NCBI RefSeq assembly: GCF_040802235.1
Contig: NC_133166.1
Coordinates: 434,001 to 498,000 of the forward strand
DNA: 64,000 bases
Reading direction: 5' to 3'
Source: Manis javanica
Lineage: Eukaryota > Chordata > Mammalia > Pholidota > Manidae
The notes under the pieces were generated by a model. It had not been told where the DNA came from and made no database searches. It saw only the letters and a list, made by a program, of their open reading frames with translations. The position numbers were made by a program, and so were the translations under genes. Below are positions 7,191 through 61,395 of this stretch, in pieces. Positions within the stretch are counted from its first letter, which is position 1. The number at the start of each line of letters is the position of its first letter.

Positions 7191-7207
7191 CACATTTCTC
7201 CATTTTT
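7191..7207. repeat. Target-site duplication (left) of ERV-tail copy A
   Basis: CACATTTCTCCATTTTT, identical to 8,573-8,589. It lies directly outside the poly(T) (poly(A) in sense) of copy A. Confidence 0.85.
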
Positions 7208-8572
7208 TTTTTTTGAGAGGGCATCTCTCATATTTATTGATCAAATGGTTGTTAACAACAATAAAATTCTGTACAGGGGATTCAATGCACAATCATTAAT
7301 CAACCCCAGGCCTAATTCTCAAGAGTCTCCAATCTTCTGAAGCATAACAAACAAGTTCTTACATGGTGAACAAATTCTTACATAGTGAATAAGTTCTTAC
7401 GTGGTGAACAGTGCAAGGGCAGTCATCACAGAAACTTTCGGTTTTGATCGCGCATCATGAACTATAAACCATCAGGTCAAATGTGAATATTCGTTTGATT
7501 TTTATACTTCATTTATATGTGAATCCCACATTTCTCCCTTATTATTATTATTTTTTTAAATAAAATGCTGAAGTGGTAGGTACATGCAAGATAAAGGTAG
7601 GAAACATAGTTTAGTGCTGTAAGAGGGCAAATGTAGATGATCAGGTGTGTGCCTGTAGACTATGTGTTAATCCAAGCTAGACAAGGGCATTAAAACATCC
7701 GCGGATGCAGAAGATTTCTCTCAAAGCAGGGGGGATGAGGTTCTGAGCCTCACCTCTGTTGATCCCCAATTTCTCACCTGATGGCCCTCCTGCGACTCTG
7801 CCTGTCTTAGGTTGTTCCTCCCTTGAGGAATCTTACCCGTCTCTGGCTAACCAGTCATCTTCCGGGGCCATACAGGGAAATGTAAAGTTGGTAAGTGAGA
7901 GAGAAGCAATATTGTTTGAAAAGGTTAGCTTTTTACTTCTTTGCATATTTATGTCCCGTGGCTTCTATGCCCAGCATTTGTCTTGAGTATCTTTAACACC
8001 TGGAAGAATTATGATACTCGGTAATTTCGATATGAGGCACGAATTCTACTTAACGATTGTAATTAGGAAGGAAGAAGAAAAGTTATAGAAGTAGCAGACG
8101 GAAGAAAACATGGGAGGATTGATTATTTCTTTGACATATCTTCTTGTAGAGTAACATAAGCATGTATAGGTTTTAAACTACTAATTAAATTGAGTGCACA
8201 CATTAACGTAATAGGAATACAGCTACATAACCAAAGCAGACCTATAATTACCAGCCATATCCAGTGAAACAAAAAAAAAAAACAGTTAGGCACCCGAGGC
8301 ATTTGTGAAAACTTATCAATGATATGATGAATATTGTGTAACTGAATTTGAATAGTTTGAGAAAAATCAAACAAATTAAAACAACACATTCCTGGGAACT
8401 GTTGACATCCCATATGTTCTTTTAACAGTAGATAGTCTGTAGTCGCAAGATTTTGGAGCGCTGCAACTTGCACTTCTCCTAATTCTTGGTTGAGTTTCGA
8501 CAGTATAGATCCAGTCAAATTTGTTGTTTTACTGTATGCACAGGCCAGCTTAGATATCTCCTTCTTCATTCC
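7208..8572 (-). mobile_element. 5'-truncated L1 copy A carrying only the ERV-derived 3' tail
   Basis: Starts with poly(T) (the poly(A) tail in sense) and reads, in sense, env-like remnant, LTR-like segment, AATAAA (complement at 7,233-7,238), then tail. It contains none of the L1 coding region; the 5' end is cut inside the env-like frame. A perfect 17 bp TSD flanks it, so it was inserted by target-primed reverse transcription (L1 machinery) rather than as a provirus. It is more like the tail of copy C than those of copies B and D, so it belongs to an older layer of the same family. Confidence 0.85.
8123..8569 (-). pseudogene. ERV envelope transmembrane-subunit remnant (in copy A)
   Basis: An open frame of just under 150 codons beginning MKKEISKLACAY and ending EDMSKK. 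It shows, in order: a heptad-like region rich in Leu/Asn/Gln ('LNQELGEVQVAALQN'), an immunosuppressive-domain-like position followed by a C-X6-C-C motif (GCQQFPGMCC), a second helical part, then one hydrophobic span (WLVIIGLLWLC). These are hallmarks of class I retroviral TM subunits with a CX6CC motif. Everything upstream (SU, cleavage site, complete fusion peptide) is missing, so it cannot be a working envelope. The upstream codon of the open frame is GTG, not ATG; ATG is at the MKKE position. Confidence 0.65.
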
Positions 8573-8589
8573 CACATTTCTCCATTTTT
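8573..8589. repeat. Target-site duplication (right) of ERV-tail copy A
   Basis: Second copy of CACATTTCTCCATTTTT, adjoining the truncated 5' end of copy A. Confidence 0.85.
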
Positions 8590-8728: not shown

Positions 8729-8800
8729 AAAATACTGAGAAAAAACAACCATTTGATCAATAAATATGAGAAATGCCCTCTCAAAAAAAAATACTGAGAA
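8729..8800 (+). mobile_element. Micro-insertion: last ~46 bp of the young L1/ERV tail
   Basis: Positions 8,742-8,787 match the extreme 3' end of the family (AACAACCATTTGATCAATAA, then the ATGCCCTCTC end and a short poly(A)). The 13 bp AAAATACTGAGAA occurs on both sides (8,729-8,741 and 8,788-8,800) as a TSD. It is an extremely 5'-truncated retrotransposition event on the plus strand. Confidence 0.8.
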
Positions 8801-10025: not shown

Positions 10026-10042
10026 GTTTCATGCATATTTTT
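10026..10042. repeat. Target-site duplication (left) of full-length L1 copy B
   Basis: GTTTCATGCATATTTTT, perfect match to 18,452-18,468; it merges into the poly(T). Confidence 0.9.
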
Positions 10043-10068
10043 TTTTTTTTGAGAGGGCATCTCTCATA

Positions 10069-10074
10069 TTTATT
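10069..10074 (-). terminator. Polyadenylation signal AATAAA of copy B
   Basis: TTTATT on the plus strand, i.e. AATAAA in sense, 18 bases before the end of unique sequence (the ATGCCCTCTC end) and the start of poly(A). The same spacing is seen in copies A, C and D. It is supplied by the ERV tail, not by the L1 3' UTR. Confidence 0.8.
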
Positions 10075-11007
10075 GATCAAATGGTTGTTAACAACAATAT
10101 AATTCAGTATAGGAGGGTCAATGCTCAATGTACAATCATTAATCCATCTCAAGCCTAATTCTCATCAGTCTCCAATCTTCTGAAGCATAACGAACAAGTT
10201 CTTACATGGTGAACGAATTCTTACAGAGTGAATAAATTCTTACATGGTGAACAGTACAAGGGCATTCATCACAGAAACTTTCGGTTTTGATCATGCAATA
10301 TGACCTATAAACCATCAGGTCAAATATGAATATTCATTTGATTTTTGTACTTGATTTATATGTTGATCCCACATTTCTCCTATTATTATTATTTTTATTT
10401 TTAATAAAATGCTGAAGTGGTAGGTAGATGCAAGATAAAGGTAGAAAACATAGTTTAGTGCTGTAAGAAGGCAAATGTAGATGATCAGATGATCAGGTGT
10501 GTGCCTATGGACCAAGTATTAATCCAGGCTAGACAAGGGCAGCAAGACATCCACGGATGCAGAAGATTTCTCTCAAAGCAGGGGGGGTGAGGTTCTGAGC
10601 CTCACCTCTGTTGATCCCCAAATTCTCACCTGATGGCCCCCCTGCGACTGTGCCTGTCTTAGGTTGTTCCTCCCTTGAGGAATCTTACCCGTCTCTGGCT
10701 AACCAGTCATCTTCCGGGGCCATACAGGGAAATGTAAAGTTGGTAAGTGAGAGAGAAGCCATATTGTTTGCAAAGGTTAGCTTTTTACTTCTTTGCAGAT
10801 TTATGCCCTGTGGCTTCTATGCCCAGCACTTGTCTCGAGGTATCTTTACCACCTGGAGGAATTATGATACTCGGTAAATTCGATATGAGGCACGAATTCT
10901 ATTTAAGGTTTGTAATTAGGAAGGAAGAAGAAAAGCTATAGATGTAGCATATGAAGGAAACTTGGGAGGATTGATTATTTCTTTGACATATCTTCTTGTA
11001 TAGTACC

Positions 11008-11449
11008 TTAAGTATGTATAGGTTTTAAACTACTAACTAATTTGCACACACATATTAACATAATAGGAATACGGTGACATAAACAAAGCAAATCTATAAT
11101 TACCAGCCATCTCCAGTGAAGCCAAGAAAACCATTTAGGCACCCTAGGCATTTGTGAAAATTTATCTATGATATGATGGATATTTTCCAACTGTACTTGA
11201 ACCATCAGACAAATTAAAGCAGCCCATTTCTGGGATCTGTTCACATCCCATATGTTCTTTTAACCATAGATAGTCTATAGTCATGAGATTTTGGGGTGCT
11301 ACAACTTGCACCCCTCCCAACTCCTGGTTGAGTTCCAACAGTACAGATCCAGTCAAATTCGTTGTCTCACTGTATGCACATGCCAGCCTAGACATCTCCC
11401 TCCTCCTTCTTATGGCAAGTCCAGGAGACGGTGGGCTGGATGCAGCCAC
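11008..11449 (-). pseudogene. ERV envelope TM remnant (in copy B), frameshifted
   Basis: Two overlapping frames (11,449-11,162 and 11,244-11,008) together correspond to the TM remnant seen in copy A, with a frameshift between them. The cysteine motif is damaged: the stretch reads GCEQIPEMGC, losing one of the two adjacent cysteines. The C-terminal hydrophobic part is present in the second frame. The residues before it are basic (AIRRRREMS), unlike copies A and C. It is non-coding baggage of the L1 tail as far as the sequence shows. Confidence 0.7.
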
Positions 11450-11885
11450 AACCGCAGCATCGTCCGGATCCCTGTGGAGGCTTTTTGATGATCATCCCCC
11501 GGCACGAGTCCTCCAGAGAGTGCTGATGCCGGAAGCTCCTCCTCATATCGTATCTTAGTTCATTTTCTGGGTATCCAAGCTAGGCCTTGATCTTCTGCGT
11601 AGAAACAAACAGACCCTTTGCCCACACTTTGACATGCCCTCTATACCACTGTGCAGAACTCATTGGAGGTCAGCACACAGTAACTGCTTTTTTTTTTTTT
11701 TTAATTAAGAGAAAGGAATATTATCAGAAAAGAGTACCTCCATAGCTGATCATCTGACACCCTTTAAGTGATCAACATTAAGGATATTTAAAGCATGCGT
11801 TGATCATTGATTTACCAATAGTTTTATCCTGTTAAGGAGTAATCCCCCTTTTCTTTCTTTCTTTCTTTTTTTTTTTTTAAATTTT

Positions 11886-12220
11886 TAATCTACACTTACC
11901 TGAAGAATACTATGTTTACTATGCTCTCCCCTATATCAGGTCCCCCCTAACAACCACATTACGGTTACTGTCCATCAGCTTAGCAAAATGTGGTAGAGTC
12001 ACTACTTGTCCTCTCTGTGTTGTGCAGCCCACCCTCCCCTTTCTCCCTCCCCCCCATGCATGCTAATCTTAATACCCGCCTTCTTCTTCCCCCCCCTTAT
12101 CCCTCCCTGCCCACCCATCCTCCCCAGTTCCTTTCCCTTTGGTACCTGTTAGTCCATTTTTGGGTTCTGTAATTCTGCTGCTGTTTTGTTCCTTCAGTTT
12201 TTCCTTTGTTCCTATACTCC
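11886..12220 (-). other. L1 3' UTR of copy B with G-rich tract
   Basis: Follows the ORF2 stop. In sense it carries a long G-rich stretch (C-rich on the plus strand at about 12,030-12,125) with several runs of three or more Gs, the usual G-quadruplex-prone feature of mammalian L1 3' UTRs. It ends in an A-rich tract (plus-strand CTTT repeats at 11,850-11,870), which is probably the ancestral L1 poly(A) site now buried inside the unit. Confidence 0.75.
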
Positions 12221-15200
12221 TCAGATGAGTGAAATCATTTGGTATTTCTCTTTCTCCGCTTGGCTTATTTCACTGAGCATAATACTCTCCAGCTCCATCC
12301 ATGTTGCTGCAAATGGTTGGATTTTTCCACTTCTTATGGCTGAGTAGTATTCCATTGTGTATATGTACCACATCTTCTTTATCCATTCATCTACAGATGG
12401 ACATTTAGGTTGCTTCCAATTCTTGGCTATTGTAAATAGTGCTGCGATAAACATAGGAGTGCATCTGTCTTTCTCAAACTTGATTGCAGCGTTCTTAGGG
12501 TAAATTCCTAGGAGTGGAATTCCTGGGTCAAATGGTAGGTCTGTTTTGAGCATTTTGATGCACCTCCATACTGCTTTCCACAATGGTTGAACTAATTTAC
12601 ATTCCCACCAGCAGTGTAGGAGGGTTCCCCTTTCTCCACAGCCTCGCCAACATTTGTTGTTGTTTGTCTTTTGGATGGCAGCTATCCTTACTGGTGTAAG
12701 GTGATACCTCATTATAGTTTTAATTTGCATTTCTCTGATAATTAGCGATGTGGAGCATCTTTTCATGTGTCTCTTGGCCATCTGTATTTCTTTTTTGGAG
12801 AACTGTCTGTTCAGTTCCTCTGCCCATTTTTTAATTGGGTTATTTGTTTTTTGTTTGTTGAGGCGTGTGAGCTCTTTATATATTCTGGACGTCAAGCCTT
12901 TATCAGATCTGTCATTTTCAAATATATTCTCCCATACTGTAGGGTTCCTTTTTGTTCTATTGATGGTGTCTTTCGCTGTACAGAAGCTTTTCAGCTTAAT
13001 GTAGTCCCACTTGCTCATTTTTGCTGTTGTTTTCCTTGCCCGGGGAGATATGTTCAAGAAGAGATCACTCATGTTTATGTCTAAGAGGTTTTTGCCTATG
13101 TTTTTTTCCAAGAGTTTAATGGTTTCGTGACTTACATTCAGGTCTTTGATCCATTTTGAGTTTACCTTTGTATATGGGGTTAGACAATGGTCCAGTTTCA
13201 TTCTCCTACATGTAGCTGTCCAGTTTTGCCAGCACCATCTGTTGAAGAGACTGTCATTTTGCCATTGTATGTCCATGGCTCCTTTATCAAATATTAATTG
13301 ACCATATATGTTTGGGTTAATTTCTGGGGTCTCTAATCTGTTCCACTGGTCTGTGGCTCTGTTCTTGTGCCAGTACCAAATTGTCTTGATTACTATGGCT
13401 TTGTAGTAGAGCTTGAAGTTGGGGAGTGAGATCCCCCCTACTTTATTCTTCTTTTTCAGGATTGCTTTGGCTATTCGGGGTCTTTGGTGTTTCCATATGA
13501 ATTTTTGAATTATTTGTTCCAATTCATTGAAGAATGTTGCTGGTAATTTGAGAGGGATTGCATCAAATTTGTATATTGCTTTCGGCAGGATGGCCATTTT
13601 GACGATATTAATTCTTCCTAGCCATGAGCATGGGATGAGTTTCCATTTATTAGTGTCCCCTTTAATTTCTCTTAAGAGTGACTTGTAGTTTTCAGAGTAT
13701 AAGTCTTTCACTTCCTTGGTTAGGTTTATTCCTAGGTATTTTATTCTTTTTGATGCAATGGTGAATGGAATTGTTTTCCTGATTTCTCTTTCTATTGATT
13801 CGTTGTTAGTGTATAGGAAAGCTACAGATTTCTGTGTGTTGATTTTGTATCCTGCAACTTTGCTGTATTCCGATATCAGTTCTAGTAGTTTTGGAGTGGA
13901 GTCTTTAGGGTTTTTTATGTACAGTATCATATCATCTGCAAATAGTGACAGTTTAACTTCTTCTTTACCAATCTGGATTCCTTGTATTTCTTTGTTTTGT
14001 CTGATTGCCGTGGCTAGGACCTCCAGTACTATGTTAAATAACAGTGGGGAGAGTGGGCATCCCTGTCTGGTTCCCGATCTCAGTGGAAATGCTTTCAGCT
14101 TCTCGCTGTTCAGTATAATGCTGGCTGTGGGTTTATCATAGATGGCCTTTATTATGTTGAGGTACTTGCCCTCTATTCCCATTTTGCTGAGAGTTTTTAT
14201 CATGAATGGATGTTGAATTTTGTCAAATGCTTTTTCAGCATCTATGGAGATGATCATGTGGTTTTTGTCTTTCTTTTTGTTGATGTGGTGGATGATGTTG
14301 ATGGATTTTCGAATGTTGTACCATCCTTGCATCCCTGGGATGAACCCCACTTGGTCATGGTGTATGATCCTTTTGATATACTGTTGAATTCTGTTTGCTA
14401 ATATTTTATTGAGTATTTTTGCATCTACATTCATCAGGGATATTGGTCTGTAATTTTCTTTTTTGGTGGGGTCTTTTCCTGGTTTTGGTATTAGGGTGAT
14501 GTTGGCTTCATAGAATGAGTTTGGGAGTATTCCCTCTTCTTCTATTTTGTGGAACACTTTAAGGAGAATGGGTATTATGTCTTCTCTGTGTGTCTGATAA
14601 AATTCCGAGGTAAATCCGTCCGGCCCCGGGGTTTTGTTCTTGGGTAGTTTTTTGATTACTGTTTCAATTTCTTTGCTTGTAATTGGTTTGTTTAACTTTT
14701 GTGTTTCTTCCTTGGTCAGTCTTGGGAGGTTGTATTTTTCTAGGAAGTTGTCCATTTCTTCTAGGTTTTCCAGCTTCTTAGTATATAGGTTTTCATAGTA
14801 GTCTCTAATAATTCTTTGTATTTCTGTGGAGTCTGTCGTGATTTTTCCATTCTCATTTCTGATTATGTTGATTTGTGTTGACTCTCTTTTTCTCTTAATA
14901 AGTTGGGCTAGAGGCTTATCTATTTTGTTTATTTTCTCAAAGAACCAGCTCTTGGTTTCGTTGATTTTTGCTATTGTTTTATTCTTCTCAATTTTGTTTA
15001 TTTCTTCTCTGATCTTTATTATGTCCCTCCTTCTGCTGACTTTAGGCCTCATTTGTTCTTCTTTTTCCAGTTTTAATAATTGTGATGTTAGACTATTCAT
15101 TTGGGATTGTTCTTCCTTCTTCAAGTGTGACTGGATTGCTATATACTTTCCTCTTAAGACTGCTTTCGCTGCATCCCACAGAAGTTGGGGCTTAGTGTTG

Positions 15201-16036
15201 TTGTTGTCATTTGTTTCTATATATTCCTTGATCTCTATTTTGATTTGTTCATTGATCCATTGATTATTTAGTAGCATGTTGTTAAGCCTCCATGTGTTTG
15301 TGAGCCTTTTTGTTTTCTTTGTAGAATTTATTTCTACTTTCATACCTTTGTGGTCTGAAAAATTGGTTGGTAGAATTTCAATATTGTGGAATTTACTGAG
15401 GCTCTTTTTGTGAGCTAGTATGTGGTCTATTCTGGAGAATGTTCCATGTGCACTTGAGAAGAATGTATATCCTGTTGCTTTTGGATGTAAAGTTCTATAG
15501 ATGTCTATTATGTCCATCTGTTCTAGTGTGTTGTTCAGTGCCTGTGTGTCTTTACTTATTTTCTGCCTGGTGGATCTATCCTTTGGGGTGAGTGGTGTGT
15601 TGAAGTCTCCTACAATGAATGCATTGCAGTCTATTTCCCTCTTTAGTTCTGTTAGTATTTGCTTCACATATGCTGGTGCTCCTGTATTGGGTGCATATAT
15701 ATTTAGAATGGTTATATCCTCTTGTTGGACTAAGCCCTTTATCATTATGTAGTGGCCTTCTTTATCTCTTGTTACTTTCTTTGTTTTGAAGTCTATTTTG
15801 TCTGATATTAGTACTGCAACCCCTGCTTTCTTCTCACTGTTGTTTGCCTGAAATATGTTTTTCCATCCCTTGACTTTTAGTCTATGCTTATCTTTGGATT
15901 TAAGGTGAGTTTCTTGTAAGCAGCATATAGATGGGTCTTGCTTTTTTATCCATTCTATTACTCTATGTCTTTTGATTGGTGCATTAAGTCCATTTACATT
16001 TAGGGTGACTATTGAAAGATATGTACTTATTGCCAT
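12221..16036 (-). CDS. L1 ORF2p (endonuclease / reverse transcriptase), intact
   Basis: 1,271 codons from the ATG ([20 protein letters not shown]) to the stop; the open frame extends nine codons further upstream through a TTG, but ATG is the sensible start. ORF2p nicks target DNA and reverse-transcribes L1 RNA in place. Visible domains: an apurinic-type endonuclease (NVNGLN; CCLQETH near residue 42; GDFNTPL; SDHKG near residue 228), the reverse transcriptase ([44 protein letters not shown] near residue 700), and a C-terminal cysteine cluster of form C-X3-C-X7-H-X4-C ([18 protein letters not shown] near residue 1,130-1,147). Length matches mammalian ORF2p (about 1,275). No stop or frameshift interrupts it, unlike every other ORF2 in the window. 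Translation is presumably by reinitiation after ORF1, since there is only about 0.2 kb between them. Confidence 0.95.
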
Positions 16037-16231
16037 TGCAGGCTTTAGATTCGTGGTTACCAAAGGTTCAAGGTTAGCTTCTTTAGTATCTTACTGCCTA
16101 ACTTAGCTCGCTTATTGAGCTGTTATATACACTGTCTGGAGAGTCTTTTCTTCTCTCCCTTCTTATTCCTCCTCCTCCATTCTTCATATGTTGTGTGTTT
16201 TGTTCTGTGCTCTTTTTAGGGGTGCTCCCAT

Positions 16232-17155
16232 CTAGAGCAGTCCCTGTAGGATGCCTTGTAGAGGTGGTTTGTGGGAAGCAAATTCCCTCAGCTTTTGCTT
16301 GTCTGGGAATTGCTTGATCCCACCATCATATTTAAATGATAGTCGTGCTGGATACAGTATCCTTGGTTCAAGGCCCTTCTGTTTCATTGCATTAAGTATA
16401 TCATGCCATTCTCTTCTGGCCTGTAGGGTTTCTGTTGAGAAGTCTGATGTTAGCCTGATTGGTTTTCCTTTATAGGTGACCTTTTTCTCTCTAGCTGCCT
16501 TTAAAACTCTTTCCTTGTCCTTGATCCTTGCCATTTTAATTATTATGTGTCTTGGTGTTGTCCTCCTTGGATCCTTTCTGTTGGGGGTTCTGTATAATTC
16601 CATGGTCTGTTCGATTATTTCCTCCCCCAGTTTGGGGAAGTTTTCAGCAATTATTTCTTCAAAGACACTTTCTATCCCTTTTCCTCTTTCTTCCTCTTCT
16701 GGTATCCCTATAATACGAATGTTTTTCCTTTTGTATTGGTCACATATTTCTCTTAGTGTTGTTTCATTCCTGGAGATCCTTTTATCTCTCTCTATGTCAG
16801 CTTCTATACGTTCCTGTTCTCTGGCTTCTATTCCTTCAATGGCCTCTTGCATCTTATCCATTCTGCTTATAAATCCTTCCAGGGATTGTTTCACTTCTGT
16901 GATCTCTTTCCTGACATCTGTGATCTCCTTCCGGACTTCATCCCACTGCTCTTGCATTTTTCTCTGCATCTCATCCCACTGCTCTTGCATTTTTCTCTGC
17001 ATCTCATCCCATTGCTCTTGCATTTTTCTCTGCATCTCTGTCAGCATGTTCATGATTTTTATTTTGAATTCTTTTTCAGGAAGACTAGTTAGGTCTGTCT
17101 CCTTCTCAGGTGTTGTCTCTGTGATCTTTGTCTGCCTGTAGTTTTGCCTTTTCAT
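16232..17155 (-). CDS. L1 ORF1p (RNA-binding coiled-coil protein), intact
   Basis: 307 codons starting MKRQNYRQTKITETTPE. ORF1p forms trimers that coat L1 RNA and act as a chaperone. In order: a short N-terminal region, a long coiled coil (about residues 35-125) that includes three direct copies of an 11-residue unit (MQRKMQEQWDE; about residues 40-72), the RRM-like domain (RKNIRIIGIPEEEE), and the C-terminal domain (ARREWHDILNAMKQKGLEPR, ARLSF). The repeat adds 22 residues relative to the single unit in the older copy C (MQRNIRERRDE). No disabling mutation. It lies 5' of ORF2 in the same element and would be read from the same transcript. Confidence 0.93.
   Translation of the reverse strand: MKRQNYRQTKITETTPEKETDLTSLPEKEFKIKIMNMLTEMQRKMQEQWDEMQRKMQEQWDEMQRKMQEQWDEVRKEITDVRKEITEVKQSLEGFISRMDKMQEAIEGIEAREQERIEADIERDKRISRNETTLREICDQYKRKNIRIIGIPEEEERGKGIESVFEEIIAENFPKLGEEIIEQTMELYRTPNRKDPRRTTPRHIIIKMARIKDKERVLKAAREKKVTYKGKPIRLTSDFSTETLQARREWHDILNAMKQKGLEPRILYPARLSFKYDGGIKQFPDKQKLREFASHKPPLQGILQGLL
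16939..17037 (-). repeat. 33 bp x 3 in-frame tandem repeat inside ORF1
   Basis: Three adjacent 33 bp units starting at 16,939, 16,972 and 17,005, differing by a single base in the last (CATCCCATTG against CATCCCACTG). They encode the hendecad repeat in the coiled coil. Copy C has one unit at the corresponding place. Confidence 0.95.
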
Positions 17156-18451
17156 GGTGATAGAGATAGTTTGCAGAGCTGGTACAAGTGACCGCTGGAA
17201 TAGCTTCCCTTCTTGTTGGTTTGTAGCCTTTTCCTGGGAGAATAGCGACCTCTAGTGGCTTGTGCTGGGCAGCTGCGCGCAGACAGGGCTTCTGCTTCCT
17301 GCCCAGTTGCTTTGGGGTTTATCTCCGCTGTTGCTGTGGGCTTGGCCTGGCTGGGGCTGTTCCTCCAAAATGGTGGAGCCCCGTTGGAGGGGGAGCAGCC
17401 AGGAGACTATTTATCTCCGTAAGGGGCCTCTGTGCTCCCTGCTGCCCAGGGGGTTAGAGTGCCCAGAGATCCCCAGATTCCCTGCTTCTGGTCTAAGTGA
17501 CCTGTCCTGCCCCTTTAAGATTTCCAAAAAGCACTCTCCAAACCAAAACAACAGCAGCAACAATGAGAGAGGGAACAGAAAGAAAGAGAAAAAAAAAAGG
17601 AAAAAAAGGGAAAAAACAAGCGATTTTTTTTTTTTTTTTTTTTTTTGTCCTCAGGTGCCGGTCCCAGGCACCCGCTCACTGGTCCTGCTGCCCTGTCTCC
17701 CTAGCACCAGGGTCCCTGTCCTTTCAAGGCTTCCAAAAAGCACCCACCCACCGGTCCCGCAGGGAAGGAATGCTCAATATTCTTTGTCCTCAGGCACTGG
17801 TCCCACGCACCCGCTCACCAGTCCCGCCGCCCTGCCTCCCTAGCACCGGGGTCCCTGTCCCTTTTAGGCTTCCAAAAAGCACTCGCAGAAAAGAGAAAAA
17901 AAAAAGGGGAAAAACGCGCGATTTCCTCTGTTCTCAAGTGCCGGTCTCAGGCACCCGCCCACCGGTCCCGCAGGGAAAAACGGGGGATATTCTTTGTCCT
18001 CAGGCGCCGGTCCCAGCCACCCGCTCACCAGTCCCGCCACCGTGCCTCCCTAGCACTGGGGTCCCCGTCCCTTCAAGGCTTTCAAAAAGCGCTCGCCAAA
18101 AAGAGAAAAAAAAAAAAGGGGAAAAACGCGCGACCTCCTCCGTCCTCAGGCACTGGTCTCAGGCACCCGCCCCCAGGTCTCGCAGGGAGAAACGCGGGAT
18201 ATTCTTTTTCCTCCGGCGCCGTTCCCAGGCACCTCCTCACCGGTCCCGCCACCCTGCCTCCCCAGCAACGGGGGCCCGTCCCTCTAAGGCTTCCAAAAAG
18301 CGCTCGCCAAAAAAAAAAAAAAAAAAAAAACACCGCTCCGGTTTCTCTCCACCCGCCGGGAGCCGGGGGGAGGGGCGCTCGGGTCCCGCCGGGCTGGGGC
18401 TTGTATCTTACCCCCTTCACAAGGCGCTGGGTTCTTGCAGGTGTGGATGTG
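17156..18451 (-). promoter_or_regulatory. L1 5' UTR / internal promoter of copy B with ~210 bp tandem units
   Basis: GC- and CpG-rich leader upstream of ORF1. A marker phrase (TCCAAAAAGC or close) recurs at about 17,522, 17,731, 17,870, 18,080 and 18,291, giving steps of about 209, 139, 210 and 211. Each unit also carries a 'caggc(a/g)c(c/t)ggtc' block, a 'cctgcctccc(t)agca' block and an A-rich block on the plus strand. Copy C has only one such unit, so the array arose by expansion. By analogy with the mouse L1 monomers this is probably promoter sequence, but promoter function is an inference. The outermost ~133 bp, with the YY1-like AGCCAAGAT of copy C, is missing. Confidence 0.8.
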
Positions 18452-18468
18452 GTTTCATGCATATTTTT
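18452..18468. repeat. Target-site duplication (right) of copy B
   Basis: Second copy of GTTTCATGCATATTTTT, directly after the 5' UTR end (...GTGTGGATGTG on the plus strand). Confidence 0.9.
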
Positions 18469-19404: not shown

Positions 19405-21483
19405 TATGTGTTTTTCCATCCCTTGACTTTTAGTCTGTGATTGTCTTTGGGTTTGAGGTGAGTTTCTTGTAAGCAGCATATAGATGGGTCTTGCTTTTTT
19501 ATCCATTCTATTACTCTGTGTCTTTTGATTGGTGCATTCAGTTCATTTACATTTAGGGTGACTATTCAAAGATATGTACTTATTACCATTGCAGGCTTCA
19601 GATTCGTGGTTACCAAATGTTCAAGGTTAGCTTCTTTAGTATCTTACTGCCTAACTTAGCTCGCTTATTGAGCTGTTATATACAATGTCTGGAGATTCTT
19701 TTCTTCTCTCCCTTCGTATTCCTCCTCCTCCATTCTTTATATGTTGGTTGTTTTATTCTGTGCTCTTTCGCGTTTCCTTTAACTGCTTTTAGTGGGTAGT
19801 TGATTTTATTTTTTGCCTTTAGTTAGTATTTGGTTGGTCTGCTTTCTTTGCTATGATTTATTTTCTCTGGTGACATCTGTTTAGTCTTAGGAGTGCTCCC
19901 GTCTAGAGCAGTCCCTCTAAAATACCCTGTAGAGGTAGTTTGGGGGAGGCAAATTCCCTCAACTTTTGCTTGTCTGGGAATTATTTAATCCTTCATATTT
20001 AAATGATAATCATGCTGGATACATTATCCTTGGTTCGAGGCTCATCTGTTTCATTGCATTAAGTATATCATGCCATTGTCTTCTGGCCTGTAAGGTTTCT
20101 GCTGAGAAGTCTGATGATAGCCTGATGGGTTTTCCTTTGCAAATGACCATTTTTTCTGTCTGGTTGCCTTTAATACTTTGTCCTTGTCTTTGATCTTTAC
20201 CATTTTAATTATTATGTGTCTTGGTATTGCCCTCCTTGGGTCCTTTCTGTTGGGAGTTCTGTGTATTTCCGTGGTCTGTTCGATTATTTCCTCCCCCAGT
20301 TTGGGGAAATTTTTGGCAATTATTTCTTCAAAGAAACTTTCTATCCCTTTTTCTCTCTCTTCTTCTTCTGGTACCCCTATAATATGGATATTGTTCCTTT
20401 TGGATTGGTCACACAGTTCTCTTAATATTGTTTCATTCCTGGAGATCCTTTTATCTCTCTCTGCATCAGCTTCTATGCGTTCCTGTTCTCTGGTTTCTAT
20501 TCCATCTATGGCCTCTTGCATCTTATCCATTCTGCTTATAAATCCTTCCAGAGTTTGTTTCACTTCTGTAATCTCTTTCCGGGCATCTGTAATCTCCCTC
20601 CAGACTTCATCTCTTCGCTCTCGTATATTTCTCTGCATCTCCATCAGCATGTTTATGATTTTTGTTTTGAATTCTTTTTCAGGAAGACTGGTTAGGTCTG
20701 TCTCCTCAGGTGTTGTCTCTGTTATCTTTGTCTGCCTGAAATTTTGCCTTTTCATGGTGATAGAGATAGTTTGCAGAGCTGGCACGAGTGATGGCTGGAA
20801 GAAATTCCCTTCTTGTTGGTTTGTGGCCTTCCTCTCCTGGGAGAACAGCGACCTCTTGTGGCTTGTCCTGGGCAGCTGCGTGCAGACGGGGTTTCTGATT
20901 CTTGCCCGGCCGCTATGGAGTTTATCTCCACTGTAGCTGTGGGTGTGGCTTGCCTAGGGCTGCTGCTCTGATATTGTGGAGCTGCGTTGGCTGGGGAATG
21001 CCCGGGAGACTATTATCTGCGTGAGGGGCCTCTGTGCTCCCTGCTGCCCAGGGGGTTAGAGTGCCCAGAGTTCCCCAGATTCCCTGCTGCTGGGCTAAGT
21101 GTCCCAGGATGCTTCCGTCCAGTTTTGGGGTCCCTGTCCCTTTAAGACTTCCAAAGAGCTCTCACTTTTCTTTGTCCCCAGGGCGCCGGCTGTGGGGACC
21201 CACTCACAGGTATTCCTGACCTGTTTCCCTCGCCGCTCCAACTCCTCTACTCCTGCCTGGAGCTGGGGTGTGGGGCGCTCATGTTCCACCAGCCGGGGCT
21301 TGTATCTTACCCCCTTCATGAGGCACTGTGTTTTTGCAGGTGTGGATGTGGTCTGGCTGTTGTCCTGTGTCTTCTGGTCTCTCTTTTAGGAAGAGTTGTC
21401 TTTGTTGTATTTTCAAAAATATATGTGGTTTTGGGAGGAGATTTCCACTGCTCTACTCCTGCTGCAATCTTGGCTCTGCCTCT
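19405..21483 (-). mobile_element. 5' part of young L1 copy C (5' UTR, ORF1, start of ORF2), inverted
   Basis: In sense: complete-looking 5' UTR starting with an AGCCAAGAT motif near 21,470 (the YY1-like site common at mammalian L1 5' ends), a single copy of the marker phrase that is repeated in copy B, ORF1, a long inter-ORF spacer that is about 110 bp longer than that of copy B, and the first part of ORF2 up to the GWK position. The rest of the element continues on the plus strand from 21,657. Confidence 0.85.
19918..20755 (-). pseudogene. L1 ORF1 of copy C, frameshifted
   Basis: ATG at 20,755 (MKRQNFRQTKITETTPEE). The frame is open for about 230 codons through the coiled coil and most of the RRM-like part, but it leaves the correct frame after KVLKATRQKK. 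The C-terminal domain is then out of frame (the visible 'GYHQTSQQKPYRPE' is frame-shifted text). One coiled-coil unit instead of the three in copy B. The 3' limit is by comparison with copy B. Confidence 0.8.
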
Positions 21484-21498
21484 CAACCCTATGTTTAT
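21484..21498. repeat. Target-site duplication of copy C, inverted copy
   Basis: AACCCTATGTTTATT, the reverse complement of AATAAACATAGGGTT at 27,441-27,455. TSDs are normally direct repeats; here the pair is inverted because this copy lies inside the inversion. Confidence 0.85.
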
Positions 21499-21656
21499 TG
21501 CTGCATTATTTTCAATAGCCATGATATGGAAGCAACCAAAGTATCAATCAATAGATGAATGGATGAAAATGGGGTATACATAATGAAATATTATTCAGCC
21601 ATACAAAAGAAAGAATCCTGCCATTTGTGACAAAATGGATGGACCTAGAGAGCATT
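21499..21656 (+). mobile_element. Inverted piece of the old host L1 (ORF2 3' region)
   Basis: Reads as sense L1 ORF2 end ('gctgcattattttcaatagc', 'atgaaatattattcagccat', 'acaaaatggatggacctaga'). The flanking pieces of this old L1 (18,990-19,404 and 27,456 onward) are on the minus strand. It fits exactly between them once inverted. Confidence 0.8.
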
Positions 21657-24600
21657 TCAGGCAAACAACAAAGAGAAGAAAGCAGGGGTTGCAGTACTAG
21701 TATCAGACAAAATAGACCTCAAAACAAAGAAAGTAACAAGAGATAAAGAAGGACATTACATAATGATAAAGGGCTCAGTCCAAAAAGAGGATGTAACCAT
21801 TACAAATATATATGCACCAAAAACAGGAGCACCAGCATATGAGAAACAAATACTAACAGAACTAAAGGGGGAAATAGACTGCAATGCATTCATTTTAGGA
21901 GACTTCAACATGCCACTCACCCCAAAGGATAGATCCACTGGGCAGAAAATAAGTAAGGACATGGAGGCACTGAACAACACACTAGAACAGATGGACCTAA
22001 TAGACATATATACAACTCTATATCCAAAAGAAGCAGGATATACATTCTTCTCAAGTGCACGTGGAACATTCTCCAGAATAGACCACATACTAGCTCACAA
22101 AAAGAGCCTCAGTAAGTTCCAAAAGATTGAAATTATACCAACCAACTTTTCAGACCACAAAGGTATAAAACTAGAAATAAATTCTACAAAGAAAAAAGGC
22201 TCACAAACACATAGAGGCTTAACAACATGTTCCTAAATAATCAAAGAATCAATGAACAAATTGAAATAGAGATCAAGGAGTATATGGAAACAAATGACAA
22301 CAACAACACAAAGCCTGAACTTCTGTGGGACACAGCGAAAGCAGTCTTAAGAGTAAAGTATATAGCGATCCAGGCACACTTAAAGAAGGAAGAACAATCC
22401 CAAATGAATAGTCTAACATCACAATTATCAAAACTGGAAAAAGAAGAACAAATGAGGCCTAAAGTCAGCAGAAGGAGGGACATAATAAAGATCAGAGAAG
22501 AAATAAACAAAATTGAGAAGAATAAAACAATACAAAAAAAATCAATGAAACCAAGAGCTGGTTCTTTGAGAAAATAAACAAAATAGATAAGCTTCTAGCC
22601 AAACTTATTAAGAGAAAAAGAGAATCAACACAAATCAACAGAATCAGAAATGAGAACAGAAAAATCAGAACAGACTCCACAGAAATACAAAGAATTATTA
22701 AAGACTACTACGAAAACCTATATGCTAACAAGCTTGAAAACCTAGAAGAAATGGACAACTTCCTAGAAAAATACAATCTTCCAAGACTGACCAAGGAGGA
22801 AACACAAAAGTTAAACAAACCAACTATGAGCAAGAAATTGAAACGGTAATCAAAAAACTACCCAAGAACAAAACCCCCGGGCCAGACGGATTTACCTCAG
22901 AATTTTATCAGACATACAGAGAAGACATAATACCTATTCTCCTTAAAGTTTTACAAAAAATAGAAGAGGAGGGAATACTCCCAAACTCATTCTATGAAGC
23001 CAACATCACCCTAATACCAAAACCAGGCAAACACCCCACCAAAAAGGAAAATTACAGATCAATACCCCTGATGAACGTAGATGCAAAAATACTCAACAAA
23101 ATATTAGCAAACCGATTTCAAAACTACATCCAGAGGATCATACACCATGACCAAGTGGGATTCATCCCAGGGATGCAAGTATGGTACAACATTCAAAAAT
23201 CCATCAATATCATCAACAAAAAGAAAGACAAAAACCACATGATCATCTCCATAGATGCTGAAAAAGCATTTGACAAAATTCAACATCTATTCATGATAAA
23301 AACTCTCAGTAAAATGGGAATAGAGGGCAAGTACCTCGACATAATAAAGGCCATATATGATAAACCCACAGCCAACATTATACTGAACAGCAAGAAGCTG
23401 AAAGCTTTTCCTCTGGGATTGGGAACTAGACAGGGATGCGCACTCTCCTCCACTGCTATTTAACATAGTACTGAAGGTCCTAGCCATGGCAATCAGACAA
23501 AACAAAGAAATACAAGAAATCCAGATTGGTAAAGAAGAAGTTAAACTGTCACTATTAGCAGATGACATGATATTGTACATAAAAAACCCTAAAGACTCCA
23601 CTCCAAAACTACTAGAACTGATATAGGAATACAGCAAAGTTGCAGGATACAAAATTAACACACAGAAATCTGTGGCTTTCCTATACACTAACAATGAACC
23701 AATAGACATAGAAATCAATAAAACAACTCCATTCACAATTGCATCAAAAAGAATAAAATACCTAGGGATAAACCTAACCAAAAAAGTGAAAGACCTATAC
23801 CCTGAAAACTACAAGACACTCTTAAGAGAAATTAAAGGGGACACTAACAAATGGAAACTCACCCCATGCTCTTGGCTAGGAAGAATTAATATCGTCAAAA
23901 TAGCCATCCTGCCCAAAGCAATATACAGATTTGATGCAATCCCTATCAAATTACCAGCAACATTCTTCAACAAACTGGAACAAATAGTTCAAAAATTCAT
24001 ATGGAAATACCACAGACCTCAAATAGCCAAAGCAATCCTGAGAAAGAATAAAGTGGTGGGGGATCTCACTCCCCAACGTCAAGCTCTACTACAAAGCCAT
24101 AGTAATAAATACAATTTGGTATTGGCACAAGAACAGAGTCACAGACCAGTGGAACAGATTAGAGACTCCAGACATTAACCCAAACATATATGGTCAATTA
24201 ATATTTGATAAAGGAGCCATGGACATATAATGGGGAAATGACAGTCTCTTCAACAGATGGTGCTGGCAAAACTGGACAGCTGCATGTAAGAGAATGAAAC
24301 TGGACCATTGTCTAACCCCATACACAAAAGTAAATTCGAAATGGATCAAAGACCTGAATGTAAGTCATGAAGCCATAAAACTCTCAGAAAAAACTATAGG
24401 CAAAAATCTCTTAGACATAAACATGAGCAACTTCTTCTTGAACATATCTCCCCGGGACAAGGAAATCAAAAGCAAAAATGAACAAGTGGGGCTATATTAA
24501 GCTGAAAATCTTCTGTACAGTAAAAGACACCATCAATAGAACAAAAAGGTACCCTACAGTATGGGAGAGTATATTTGTAAATGACAGATCCAATAAAGGC

Positions 24601-25283
24601 TTGACATCCAAAATATATAAAGAGCTCACCCACCTCAACAAACAGAAAACAAATAATCCATTTAAAAAATGGGCAGAGGAACTGAAAAGACAGTTCTCCA
24701 AAAAAGAAATTCAGATGGCCAACAGACACATGAAAAGATGCTCCACATCGCTAATTATCAGAGAAATACAAGTTAAAACCACAATGAGGTATCACCTCAC
24801 ACCAGTAAGGATGGCTGTCATCCAAAAGACAAACAACAACAAATGTTGGCAAGGTTGTGGAGAAAGGGAAACCCTCCTAAACTGCTGGTGGGAATGTAAA
24901 TTAGTTCAACCATTGTGGAAAGCAGTATGGAGGTTCATAAAAATGGTCAAAATAGACTTACCATTTGACCCAGGAATTCCACTCCTAGTAATTTAACCTA
25001 AGAATGCAGCACTCCAGTTTGAAAAAGACAGATGCACCCTATGTTTATTACAGCACTATTTACAATAGCCAAGAATTGGAAGCAACCTAAGTGTCCATCA
25101 GTAGATGAATGGATAAAGAAGATGTGGTACATATACACAATGGAATATTATTCAGCCATAAGAAGAAAACAAATCCTACCTTTTGCAACAACGTGGATGG
25201 AGCTAGAGGGTATTATGCTCAGTGAAATAAGCCAAGCAGAGAAAGAGAAATACCAAATTATTTCACTCATCTGTAGAGTATAA
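21657..25283 (+). pseudogene. L1 ORF2 of copy C, broken
   Basis: Open stretches at 21,763-22,236, 22,227-22,577, 23,071-23,463, 23,672-24,178, 24,294-24,500, 24,478-24,996 and 25,032-25,283 spell successive parts of ORF2p, including the endonuclease SDHKG region, AEKAFDKIQ, the cysteine cluster ([14 protein letters not shown], where the His of C-X3-C-X7-H-X4-C is Asn) and the C-terminus. The RT motif reads LADDMILY instead of FADD. Multiple frameshifts and stops; not functional. The N-terminal part lies inverted at 19,405 onward. Confidence 0.88.
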
Positions 25284-25629
25284 GAACAAAGGAAAAACTG
25301 AAGGAACAAAACAGCAGCAGAATCACAGAACCCAAGAATGGACTAACAGGTACCAAAGGGAAAGGGACTGAGGAGGATGGGTGGGTAGGGAGGGATAAGG
25401 GAGGGAAGAAGAAAGGGGGTATTATGATTAGCATGCATTATGTGGGGGGTGGGAAAAAGGGGAGGGCTGTGCAACACAGAGAAGACAAGCAGTGATTCTA
25501 CAATATTTTGCTATGCTGATTTACAGTGACTGTAATGGGGTTTGTGGGGGAGACTTGGTATAGGGGAGAGCCTAGTAAACATAATATTCTTCATGTAATT
25601 GTAGATTAATGATAACAAAAAAAAGAGAA

Positions 25630-27412
25630 GGAAAAGGGGGATTACTCCCTGATAGGATAAAACTAACTGCAAATCAAGGATTAATGCATGCTTTACATAT
25701 CCTTAATTTTGATCTTTTAAAGGGCATCAGATGATCAGCTATAGAAGTACATTTTTCTGATAATATTCCTATATCTTAAAAAAAGAGCAGTTCCTGTGTG
25801 GTGATCTCCAATAGGTTCTTCACAATGGTATAAAGGTCATATCAAAGTGTGGGCAAAGGGTTTGTTTGTGTTTATACAGAGGATCAAAGCCTAATTTGAC
25901 TACCCAGAAAATGAATTAAGATACGATATGAAGAAGAACTTCCAACATCAATATCCTCTGAAAGAGTCATTCCAGAAGATGATCATCAAAAAACTTCAAC
26001 AAAGATCCTGGTGCTGCTGCAGTTGTAGCTGCATTCATCCCACCAGGACCTGGACTTGCCATTGGAATGAAGAAGGAGATATCTAAGCTGGCCTGTGCAT
26101 ACAGTAAAACAACAAATTTGACTGGATCTATACTGTCAGAACTCAACCAAGAATTAGGAGAAGTGCAAGTTGCAGCGCTCCAAAATCTTGCGACTACAGA
26201 CTATCTACTGTTAAAAGAACATATGGGATGTGAACAGTTCCCAGGAATGTGTTGTTTTAATTTGTCTGATTTTTCTCAAACTATTCAAATTCAGTTAGAC
26301 AATATGCATCATATCATTGATAAGTTTTCCCAAATGCCTAGGGTGCCTAACTACTTTTTTTTTTGTTTCACTGGATATGGCTGGTAATTGTAGGTCTGCT
26401 TTGGTTATGTAGCTGTATTCCTATTACATTAATGTGTGCACACAATTTAATTAGTAGTTTAAAACCTATACATGTTTATGTTACACTACAAGAAGATATG
26501 TCAAAGAAATAATCAATCTTCCCATGTTTTCTTCCATCTGCTACTTCTATAACTTTTCTTCTTGCTTCCTAATTACAACCGTTAAGTAGAATTCGTGCCT
26601 CATATCGAAATTACTGAGTATCATAATTCTTCCAAGTGGTAAAGATACCTCAAGACAAATGCAGGGCATAGAAGTCACAGGGCATAAATATGCAAAGAAG
26701 TAAAAAGCTAACCTTTTCAAACAATATTGCTTCTCTCTCACTTACCAACTTTACATTTCCCTGTATGGCCCCGGAAGATGACTGGTTAGCCAGAGACGGG
26801 TAAGATTCCTCAAGGGAGGAACAACCTAAGACAGGCAGAGTCACAGGAGGGCCATCAGGTGAGAAATTGGGGATCAACAGAGGTGAGGCTTAGAACCTCT
26901 CCCCCGCCCCCCTGTTTTGAGAGAAATCTTCTGCATCTGTGGATGTTTTATTGCCCTTGTCTAGCTTGGATTAACACATAGTCTACAGGCACACACCTGA
27001 TCATCTACATTTGCCCTCTTACAGCACTAAACTCTGTTTTCTACCTTTATCTTGCATCTACCTACCACTTCAGCATTTTATTTAAAAATAATAATAACAA
27101 CAATCAGGGAGAATTGTGGGATTCACATATAAATCAAATATAAAAATCAAATGAATAATCACATCTGACCTGATTGTTTATAGTTGATGATACATGATCA
27201 AAACCAAAAGTTTCTGTCATATGACTGCACTTGCACTGTTTACTATGGAAGAACTTATTCACCATGTAAGAACTTGTTCATTGTGCTTCAGAAGATTGGA
27301 GACTGTTGAGAATTAGGCTTGGGGTTGATTAATGATTGTGCATTGAGTCCCCTATACAGAATTTTATTGTTGTTAACAACCATTTGATCAATAAATATGA
27401 GAGATGCCCTCT
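25630..27412 (+). mobile_element. ERV-derived 3' tail of copy C
   Basis: Same modules as in copy B: lead segment, A-rich stretch (about 25,779-25,788), env TM remnant, LTR-like part, AATAAA at 27,390-27,395. It is more like copy A than like B or D. Confidence 0.75.
26000..26512 (+). pseudogene. ERV envelope TM remnant (in copy C)
   Basis: Upstream of the ATG at 26,067 the frame reads a hydrophobic, fusion-peptide-like stretch (VAAFIPPGPGLAIG). Then come the heptad region and an intact C-X6-C-C motif (GCEQFPGMCC). The frame breaks at a T-run near 26,355, before the membrane span, whose coding sequence continues out of frame to the EDMSKK end at 26,512. SU and the cleavage site are absent. Non-functional relic. 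Confidence 0.65.
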
Positions 27413-27440
27413 AAAAAAATAAATAAATGAATGAATGAAT

Positions 27441-27455
27441 AATAAACATAGGGTT
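27441..27455. repeat. Target-site duplication of copy C, right copy
   Basis: AATAAACATAGGGTT; partner at 21,484-21,498 in inverse orientation. Confidence 0.85.
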
Positions 27456-58600: not shown

Positions 58601-58789
58601 CTATACCAAGCTGAAAATCTTCTGTACAAGAAAGGGCAGCATCAATAGAACAAAAAGACATCCTACAGTATAGGAGAATATATTCATAAATGACATATCT
58701 GATAAGGGGTTGACATCCAAATTATATAAAGAGCTCATGCATCTCAACAAATAAAAAGCAAATAAGCCAATTAAAAAATGGGCAGAGGA
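55608..58789 (+). pseudogene. L1 ORF2 of the older L1, 5' and central part, broken
   Basis: Begins [20 protein letters not shown]. Successive open stretches (55,608-56,174; 56,353-56,685; 56,765-56,971; 56,965-57,237; 57,303-57,530; 57,914-58,306; 58,329-58,673) cover the endonuclease and RT. The RT motif is altered (the DNA at about 57,683 reads FADNMILY). Stops and frameshifts are frequent. It is interrupted at 58,789 by copy D and resumes at 61,441. Confidence 0.88.
58773..58789. repeat. Target-site duplication (left) of copy D
   Basis: AAAAAATGGGCAGAGGA, a piece of host L1 ORF2, identical to 61,441-61,457. Confidence 0.9.
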
Positions 58790-59246
58790 CATCCAAAAGA
58801 CAAACAACAACAAATGTTGGCGAGGCTGTGGAGAAAGGGGAACCCTCCTACACTGCTGGTGGGAATGTAAATTAGTTCAACCATTGTGGAAAGCAGTATG
58901 GAGGTGCATCAAAATGCTCAAAACAGACCTACCATTTGACCCAGGAATTCCACTCCTAGGAATTTACCCTAAGAACGCAGCAATCAAGTTTGAGAAAGAC
59001 AGATGCACTCCTATGTTTATCGCAGCACTATTTACAATAGCCAAGAATTGGAAGCAACCTAAATGTCCATCTGTAGATGAATGGATAAAGAAGATGTGGT
59101 ACATATACACAATGGAATACTACTCAGCCATAAGAAGTGGAAAAATCCAACCATTTGCAGCAACATGGATGGAGCTGGAGAGTATTATGCTCAGTGAAAT
59201 AAGCCAAGCGGAGAAAGAGAAATACCAAATGATTTCACTCATCTGA
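58790..59246 (+). pseudogene. Truncated L1 ORF2 C-terminus (in copy D)
   Basis: Open from the cysteine cluster ([18 protein letters not shown]) to the stop after [10 protein letters not shown]. It lacks the endonuclease and RT, so it is a dead fragment, although the encoded stretch is undamaged and identical to copy B. Confidence 0.9.
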
Positions 59247-59585
59247 GGAGTATAGGAACAAAGGAAAAACTGACGGAACAAAACAGCAGCAGAATTACAG
59301 AACCCAAAAATGGACTAACAGGTACCAAAGGGAAAGGAACTGGGGAGGATGGGTGGGCAGGGAGGGATAAGGGGGGGGAAGAAGAAGGGGGGTATTAAGA
59401 TTAGCATGCATGGGGGGAGGGAGAAAGGGGAGGGTGGGCTGCACAACACAGAGAGGACAAGTAGTGACTCTACCACATTTTGCTAAGCTGATGGACAGTA
59501 ACCGTAATGTGGTTGTTAGGGGGGACCTGATATAGGGGAGAGCATAGTAAACATAGTATTCTTCAGGTAAGTGCAGATTAAAAAT
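59247..59585 (+). other. L1 3' UTR of copy D with G-rich tract
   Basis: G-rich from about 59,344 to 59,441 with several G-runs of four or more (G-quadruplex-prone), followed by the A-rich/AAAG repeat junction at about 59,586-59,616. Confidence 0.75.
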
Positions 59586-61389: not shown

Positions 61390-61395
61390 AATAAA
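61390..61395 (+). terminator. Polyadenylation signal AATAAA of copy D
   Basis: AATAAA 18 bases before the end of unique sequence, then poly(A). Same layout as in copies A, B and C. Confidence 0.8.

What the first reader, a model, noticed from the sequence alone, without database searches (positions are those of the whole stretch)
10026..18468. A single retrotransposed unit joins an intact L1 to an ERV env/LTR 3' end
A perfect 17 bp TSD (GTTTCATGCATATTTTT) lies outside both the L1 5' UTR and the poly(A) at the end of an ERV-derived segment. ORF1 and ORF2 are open. So the element's 3' end, including its AATAAA, is retroviral. The same L1 3' UTR-to-ERV junction is seen in copies C and D. This is an L1 lineage that took over an ERV polyadenylation region as its own, apparently with success (at least five insertions in 64 kb).
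Basis: partly seen in the sequence, partly recalled or inferred. Interest (0 to 1): 0.92.

Follow-up and report, generated by a model that had tools for sequence, protein, structure and literature searches.

The report
Pangolin L1 with retroviral 3' end
In this pangolin genome a young, protein-coding LINE-1 family ends not in its own tail but in a 1.8-kb piece of an old retrovirus that supplies its poly(A) signal, and the fused unit has copied itself many thousands of times.

Summary
Element A (window 10043-18451, minus strand) is one insertion: an exact 17-bp target-site duplication flanks the L1 5' UTR and the poly(A) that follows a retrovirus-derived segment. ORF1 and ORF2 are open; A lacks about 130 nt of the full 5' UTR. 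The window holds five insertions with this 3' end, each with its own duplication. The genome is Malayan pangolin. Genome-wide, the ERV-type 3' end plus poly(A) occurs 15,557 times exactly, against 2 exact sites in a pattern excluding poly(A). The L1 3'-UTR end of this subfamily occurs 7,831 times; of those listed, all 88 on C1:1-25.82 Mb are joined to ERV sequence. Of 20 fetched loci, 16 have exact duplications and 11 have both ORFs open. L1 and ERV parts diverge together (Mantel r 0.976, 19 copies). ERV-part distances between copies run from 0.003 to 0.165, roughly 0.7 to 37 My at a borrowed rate. Likely origin: read-through of an L1 lying in an ERV. No founder locus or provirus was found; ten limited literature searches found no report.

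The parts
10026..10042 (+). target-site duplication, 3' copy of element A
   Evidence: exact 17-bp match to 18452-18468
10043..10050 (-). poly(A) tail of A (reads as T on +; runs into the T-rich end of the TSD)
   Evidence: sequence
10051..10384 (-). LTR-derived 3' end (U3-R-like), AATAAA at 10069-10074, poly(A) right after CCCTCTC
   Evidence: 15,557 exact copies of this end plus 8 A in the genome, 2 exact sites in a pattern excluding poly(A); LTR start preceded by something other than the polypurine tract at 28 exact sites, against 3 for a pattern shifted by 15 bases
10385..11689 (-). ERV-derived internal part: env TM remnant (open stretch 11165-11491) to a polypurine-like tract ending at 10385
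   Evidence: TM piece matches ASLV TM 4jpr/5h9c, E 1.3e-6 and 1.5e-6 for A, 9e-11 for the same region of relative L039
11690..11705 (-). A-run inside the joined part; short (7 A) in old copy C
11706..11846 (-). first ~140 nt of the joined sequence ('mid'), origin unassigned, probably the same ERV
   Evidence: present in 27 of the 28 short junction stretches read (all but L079); 7,952 exact copies of its start in the genome
11847..11884 (-). A-rich/(GAAA)n junction at the place of the L1 native poly(A) tail
   Evidence: copies compared
11885..12220 (-). L1 3' UTR
   Evidence: continuous with ORF2; shared with an L1 that lacks the ERV part, 61755-62377
12221..16036 (-). L1 ORF2, 1271 aa, endonuclease and reverse transcriptase, open
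   Evidence: PF03372, PF00078
16232..17155 (-). L1 ORF1, 307 aa, open
   Evidence: PF02994, PF17490; best named relatives from Manis javanica
17156..18451 (-). L1 5' UTR with a tandem-repeat part (17641-18328); first ~130 nt missing
   Evidence: self-comparison; full-length relatives
18452..18468 (+). target-site duplication, 5' copy of element A
7191..8589 (-). copy B: 5'-truncated inside the ERV part, TSDs 7191-7207 / 8573-8589
8729..8800 (+). copy B': 46 bases of the ERV 3' end with poly(A) between TSDs 8729-8741 / 8788-8800
19406..27453 (+). copy C: older L1-ERV element, TSDs 21487-21499 (within an inverted block 19406-21653) / 27441-27453
58773..61457 (+). copy D: 5'-truncated L1-ERV element, 99% identical to A, TSDs 58773-58789 / 61441-61457, inserted in an older L1 that ends without ERV at about 62377

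Best explanation
This is an autonomous L1 lineage of pangolins whose 3' end is a fixed, about 1.8-kb segment of an endogenous retrovirus (env TM remnant plus the U3-R part of the LTR). It is transcribed from the L1 5' UTR through ORF1, ORF2 and the L1 3' UTR into the ERV segment and is polyadenylated at the LTR signal AATAAA; the RNA is then copied by L1 target-primed reverse transcription. Shown: the unit structure, TSDs, open ORFs, copy numbers, shared divergence of the two parts, and poly(A) in the insertions right after the LTR signal. Inferred: transcription and use of that signal (no RNA data), and the origin, by insertion of an L1 in sense orientation into or just before an ERV, read-through past a weak L1 signal to the ERV signal, and success of that read-through copy as founder of the lineage.
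For: Exact TSDs flank A, B, B', C and D and the L1+ERV unit in 16 of 20 fetched loci; old copy L039 (84.6% to A), which starts at 'mid', also has one, 16 bp. The junction is at the same place in copies from about 85% to 100% identical to A. Counts: 7,831 L1 3'-UTR ends, 7,952 junction-side starts, 15,557 ERV ends with poly(A) and 2 in a pattern excluding poly(A); reversed-pattern controls 0 in these four. Of 88 listed UTR-end sites, 88 are joined to ERV sequence: 75 by coordinates, 12 read directly with 'mid', 1 (L079) directly to the later ERV part. L1 and ERV distances correlate (19 copies, r 0.976, 0 of 2000 permutations; 16 copies without three divergent ones, r 0.829, 4 of 2000). Both ORFs are open in 11 of 20 loci and in A. 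AATAAA is absent in the 420 nt before 'mid' in 19 of 19 assessable copies of 21, whereas an ordinary L1 end carrying AATAAA occurs 3,239 times exactly. The joined part is retroviral by its ASLV TM match.
Against: No founder locus (an L1 inside this ERV with ERV on its 5' side) and no provirus was found. No shared U5 was seen beyond the poly(A) site (2 sites, different flanks). The native signal is not cleanly lost: all 19 assessed copies keep ATTAAA 38-48 nt before 'mid', and other copies have AATAAA in the A-rich junction (L042, L046, L048, one of them 97.5% identical to A, and many rows of the list). No RNA data. Pfam has no accepted match to the TM piece. 4 of 20 loci lack a recognisable TSD or 3' end (L009, L023, L026, L028). 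Only 41 of 69 'mid' starts have an exact ERV end in the listed range.
Confidence: 0.85

Rival explanations
1. The chimera arose not by read-through of an L1 lying in an ERV but by template switching during reverse transcription, from a polyadenylated ERV RNA onto the poly(A) tail of an L1 RNA (or by RNA recombination); the fused copy then became the founder.
For: The join sits at the L1 poly(A) place, which this route also predicts; no L1-in-ERV founder was found; L1 chimeras with other RNAs, with the partner on the 5' side, are known in primates (PMC13174262: abstract, outline and passages).
Against: By general knowledge 3' read-through is commoner than a switch that keeps a complete L1; no test here separates the two.
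Confidence: 0.2
2. L1 and ERV are separate insertions that lie side by side by chance or by nesting.
For: The window has nested L1s (D inside an older L1).
Against: The same junction in 40 of 40 scored hits and 88 of 88 listed sites; TSDs enclose the joint unit in 16 of 20 loci; shared divergence.
Confidence: 0.01
3. Many of the 15,557 ERV ends belong to a non-autonomous, SINE-R-like element that begins inside the ERV part and is moved in trans, so the autonomous chimera is a minority.
For: About twice as many ERV ends (15,557) as junction starts (7,952); only 42 of 100 listed ERV ends have an exact 'mid' 1.5-2.3 kb upstream; 4 of 20 loci from a pattern chosen for non-A-rich upstream letters start at 'mid'.
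Against: L1 insertions are usually 5'-truncated (general knowledge), which gives the same excess; exact-match counts lose diverged copies; B starts elsewhere.
Confidence: 0.15
4. The joined segment is not retroviral but another host transcript.
For: 'mid' is unassigned; neither Pfam nor PDB recognised the piece that looked to me like an integrase end; no provirus seen.
Against: TM homology to ASLV and more exact boundaries at the LTR start than at a shifted place, 28 against 3.
Confidence: 0.04

Closest known systems
Human L1 3'-transduction families (recalled; a title on 'an L1 transduction family' was seen only in a reference list)
   Same: L1 RNA reads past its own signal, ends at a downstream signal, and carries the flank to new sites inside one TSD
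   Different: Here the transduced piece is about 1.8 kb of ERV including an LTR signal, is shared by copies up to 0.165 apart, and sits on all 88 L1 3' ends of this subfamily that were checked on C1
SVA (SINE-R-VNTR-Alu) of hominids
   Same: 3' end (SINE-R) derived from the ERV HERV-K, terminating in poly(A); moved by L1 (PMC7353768, passages)
   Different: SVA is non-autonomous; the pangolin unit encodes its own ORF1 and ORF2
Recruitment of new 5' UTRs by mammalian L1
   Same: A foreign regulatory sequence becomes a fixed part of an active L1 lineage (PMC5872511, passages)
   Different: The recruited part here is at the 3' end and is retroviral
5' chimeric L1 insertions with small RNAs, Alu and mRNAs
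   Same: L1 joined to another RNA within one TSD (PMC13174262, abstract, outline and passages)
   Different: The partner is on the 5' side; the words pangolin, Manis, ERV and endogenous retrovirus do not occur in its main text
ERV-Alpha-Mpen of Chinese pangolin
   Same: A pangolin ERV placed between alpha- and betaretroviruses (PMC12584738, passages); our TM matches ASLV, an alpharetrovirus (recalled)
   Different: Not compared by sequence; its stated insertion ages (1.41-3.47 Mya) are far younger than the oldest chimera, so it is not shown to be the source

Membership tests
Mammalian L1 | ORF1 with L1 RNA-binding domains | tested here: met
   PF02994 2e-25, PF17490 3.5e-20
Mammalian L1 | ORF2 with endonuclease and reverse transcriptase | tested here: met
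   PF03372 4.8e-24, PF00078 5.8e-47
Mammalian L1 | Insertion with TSD and 3' poly(A) | tested here: met
   5 of 5 window copies; 16 of 20 loci
Mammalian L1 | Insertions end, with poly(A), at the L1 3' UTR | tested here: not met
   the poly(A) lies about 1.8 kb further on, after the ERV part
Mammalian L1 | Retrotransposition competence | not testable with these tools
   open ORFs and near-identical copies only suggest recent activity
L1 3'-transduction family | Sequence downstream of the L1 poly(A) site carried inside the TSD and ended by a new poly(A) | tested here: met
L1 3'-transduction family | Identified source locus | tested here: inconclusive
   none of the 20 loci inspected at 'mid' showed recognisable ERV upstream: 16 have L1, L039 was checked and has none, L031, L032 and L035 were not checked further; the TM protein search did not complete
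SVA | ERV-derived 3' end with poly(A) | tested here: met
SVA | Non-autonomous composite (hexamer, Alu-like, VNTR, SINE-R) | tested here: not met
   carries L1 ORF1 and ORF2
Endogenous retrovirus (source of the 3' part) | Retroviral TM | tested here: met
   ASLV TM, E 9e-11
Endogenous retrovirus (source of the 3' part) | LTR used as insertion boundary | tested here: met
   28 exact boundaries against 3 for the shifted control, 61 against 24 at one mismatch; at up to 2 mismatches only 244 against 144, so the excess is clear for exact sites only, and the control's own conservation was not measured
Endogenous retrovirus (source of the 3' part) | Paired LTRs / U5 | tested here: inconclusive
   2 sites without poly(A), flanks not shared

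The most novel reading that the evidence does not exclude
After the L1 signal weakened, the ERV LTR became an obligatory polyadenylation module, perhaps also aiding RNA export or stability, and the lineage that carried it displaced ordinary L1 and is the main, still active L1 of pangolins: an autonomous counterpart of what SVA did with HERV-K.
Probability: 0.4. Interest if true: 0.85.

Novelty: new variant of a known kind. Interest (0 to 1): 0.75.

Why it matters
3' transductions are common in mammals but, as far as I know, usually short-lived. Here one became a lasting part of an autonomous L1, with more than fifteen thousand exact copies of its retroviral end. It gives a natural test of how much the L1 3' UTR and its weak poly(A) signal limit L1. 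It also matters for annotation: repeat maskers may count these ERV ends as LTR insertions (the published masking gives 11.14% LTR for this genome, PMC11825179, passage; not tested here).

Tried and rejected
Separate or nested insertions: rejected by TSDs and the repeated junction. An integrase end in the ERV part: my recall only, not supported. L039 as a provirus or empty site: rejected, it is an old 5'-truncated copy with a 16-bp TSD. L029/L030 as LTRs with U5: their flanks differ, so not shown. Relatives of the TM in viral contigs: none confirmed. 31 protein relatives: one named, from Manis javanica, the other 30 unnamed. Novelty searches found no report; they cover open-licence PMC papers only, most listings were capped (for example 20 of 33, 8 of 41, 10 of 47, 12 of 24 shown), and searches returned nothing, perhaps because of the wording of the terms. 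Repbase, Dfam and subscription journals were not searched.
Full report
Where it is. The window is G000:C11:434001-498000 of a 2.56-Gb genome in 63 contigs. Genome size, longest scaffold (241.98 Mb) and NG50 (141.80 Mb) equal those printed for the Malayan pangolin, which is given 62 scaffolds (PMC11825179, passages; contig lengths). The best named ORF1 relatives are from Manis javanica. So the host is taken to be Manis javanica.

The element. On the minus strand, from 18451 down to 10043, A reads: L1 5' UTR with tandem repeats, ORF1, ORF2, L1 3' UTR, an A-rich/(GAAA)n junction, about 140 nt ('mid'), an A-run, an env TM remnant, a polypurine-like tract, and a stretch that begins TGTGGG and ends AATAAATATGAGAGATGCCCTCTC followed by poly(A). 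An exact 17-bp TSD encloses it. ORF1 and ORF2 have the expected L1 domains. Complete relatives have about 130 nt more at the 5' end, starting with a GGCGGAGCCAAGATGGCGGC-like sequence, so A is slightly 5'-truncated.

Copies in the window. B (ERV part only), B' (46 bases of the ERV end with poly(A)), C and D have their own exact TSDs of 17, 13, 13 and 17 bp. B' shows that the ERV end is what remains next to the poly(A) when an insertion is truncated almost to nothing. D is 99% identical to A and sits in an older L1 (82% to A at its 3' end) that ends at its own 3' UTR without ERV. C's 5' part (19406-21653) lies inverted together with a piece of the target L1; its TSD is found in opposite orientation at the two ends accordingly.

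In the genome. The 601-base junction query gave 40 of 40 scored hits, of 228 first-look candidates; a 656-base query from the ERV end gave 40 scored of 640. I fetched 20 of the 40 junction hits as 10-kb loci. All 20 have the junction; 16 reach the L1 5' end; 16 have an exact TSD of 10-16 bp around the unit (15; L022; in L011 the match is mostly A); the other four are L009, L023, L026 and L028. Both ORFs are open in 11 of 20. These 20 are among the best hits to A, so they lean to young copies. In these loci and the window, 25 L1 3' ends were seen: 23 with the junction (the loci were chosen for it) and 2 without, both old (77% and 82% to A). Another 20 loci came from a pattern chosen to have non-A-rich letters before 'mid' (221 sites): 16 have the L1 at the same junction, 4 start at 'mid'.

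Counts by exact pattern, whole genome, all with reversed-pattern control 0: L1 3'-UTR end of this subfamily 7,831; start of 'mid' 7,952; ERV end plus 8 A 15,557; the same ERV end with non-A letters at three set places after it 2 (by chance this form would catch about 42% of ends without poly(A)); ordinary L1 end with its own AATAAA 3,239. Exact counts miss mutated copies and include duplicated segments.

Joint presence. The lists, which show only the first 100 places each, overlap on C1:1-25.82 Mb. Of 88 UTR-end sites there, 75 have an exact 'mid' start 23-57 bases downstream on the same strand. The other 13 were read: 5 among the 20 stretches and 8. Twelve have 'mid' with a change; one, L079, is joined straight to the later ERV part. 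So 88 of 88 carry ERV sequence. My script's motif flagged 17 of the 20 stretches; the other 3 show the junction with a substitution. Some sites on C1 are copies of one another. The pattern is taken from the chimera's own subfamily, so this does not exclude a young ordinary L1 with a different 3' UTR. In the other direction 25 of 100 listed 'mid' starts have no exact UTR end upstream. Of 100 listed ERV ends, 42 have an exact 'mid' 1.5-2.3 kb upstream, 40 of them at 1.74-1.81 kb; of 69 'mid' starts in that range 41 have an exact ERV end downstream. The rest are 5'-truncated, changed or rearranged; I did not sort them.

One lineage. K2P distances between copies for an ORF2 part and for the ERV part correlate at r 0.976 over 19 copies (0 of 2000 permutations reached it), at 0.829 over 16 copies without C, L024 and L028 (4 of 2000), and 3' UTR against ERV at 0.928 over 23 (5 of 2000). 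ERV-part distances from A run from 0.003 to 0.158 over 28 other copies, with no gap wider than 0.03, and the largest between any two of the 29 is 0.165 (L038 was dropped for a short match). At 2.2e-9 per site per year, the mammalian average that PMC12584738 and PMC4643047 used for pangolins (passages), that is about 0.7 to 37 My. The rate is borrowed, so the ages are rough. The older figure precedes the split of the two Asian pangolins given as about 16.4 Mya (PMC12584738).

What the 3' part is. The TM stretch of A matches ASLV TM in PDB entries 4jpr and 5h9c (E 1.3e-6 and 1.5e-6); the same region of old copy L039 matches at 9e-11 and more weakly other viral fusion proteins (27 distinct PDB sequences up to E 1). 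Pfam gave no match above its cut-offs. The last ~330 nt behave as an LTR: its first base is preceded by something other than the polypurine tract at 28 exact sites, 14 of them shown, with different flanks; a control pattern moved 15 bases gave 3. At one mismatch the numbers are 61 and 24, in all up to two mismatches 244 and 144, so only the exact sites speak clearly. Other insertions of this LTR thus probably exist. I found no provirus and no common U5.

How it likely works. In the two ordinary L1 ends seen, an AATAAA lies at the L1 end (L027 flank and window 62377), and an ordinary end with it has 3,239 exact copies. In the chimera AATAAA is absent before 'mid' in 19 of 19 copies assessed; two of the 21 had a changed motif and were not scored. 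Other copies do have AATAAA in the A-rich junction (L042, L046, L048; many rows), and an ATTAAA 38-48 nt before 'mid' remains in all 19, so the L1 signal is weakened rather than gone. The simplest course is that an L1 landed in or before an ERV, its RNA read on to the LTR signal, and that RNA was reverse-transcribed and prospered. The L1 tail kept at the junction fits this, but a switch between two RNAs would leave the same trace.

Known or new. 3' transduction, SVA's HERV-K-derived 3' end, and uptake of new 5' UTRs by L1 are known. An autonomous L1 lineage with a fixed ERV end was not found in ten searches of open papers, whose listings were mostly capped. A 2026 survey of L1 chimeras (PMC13174262: abstract, outline, passages) treats sequences on the 5' side and has no mention of pangolin, Manis, ERV or endogenous retrovirus in its main text.

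Noticed in passing
window 19406-21653: A 2.25-kb inversion takes in the 5' part of copy C and a piece of the old L1 it landed in; breakpoints lie within L1 sequence.
   Followed up: partly
window 17641-18328: The L1 5' UTR holds tandem copies spaced about 211 bases; the array seems to differ in layout between loci.
   Followed up: no
window 8729-8800: A very short L1-type insertion: 46 bases of the ERV end with poly(A) between 13-bp TSDs.
   Followed up: yes
G000 C1, e.g. 1823197/1827574, 4500824/4505201, 23476390/23480767: Pairs of L1 3'-UTR ends 4,377 bases apart on opposite strands recur three times, and pairs about 18.9 kb apart also recur three times: probably segmental duplication on C1 (one search list).
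   Followed up: no
L079 (G000:C1:25680613-25680692): A copy with 'mid' missing, L1 joined straight to the later ERV part; could be a deletion between A-runs or a subfamily.
   Followed up: no
window 33959-34258 and 44263-44562: Direct repeat of 300 nt at 97% identity, outside the copies studied.
   Followed up: no
protein P0151: An unnamed protein carries L1 ORF1 domains and a short match to the TM piece.
   Followed up: no
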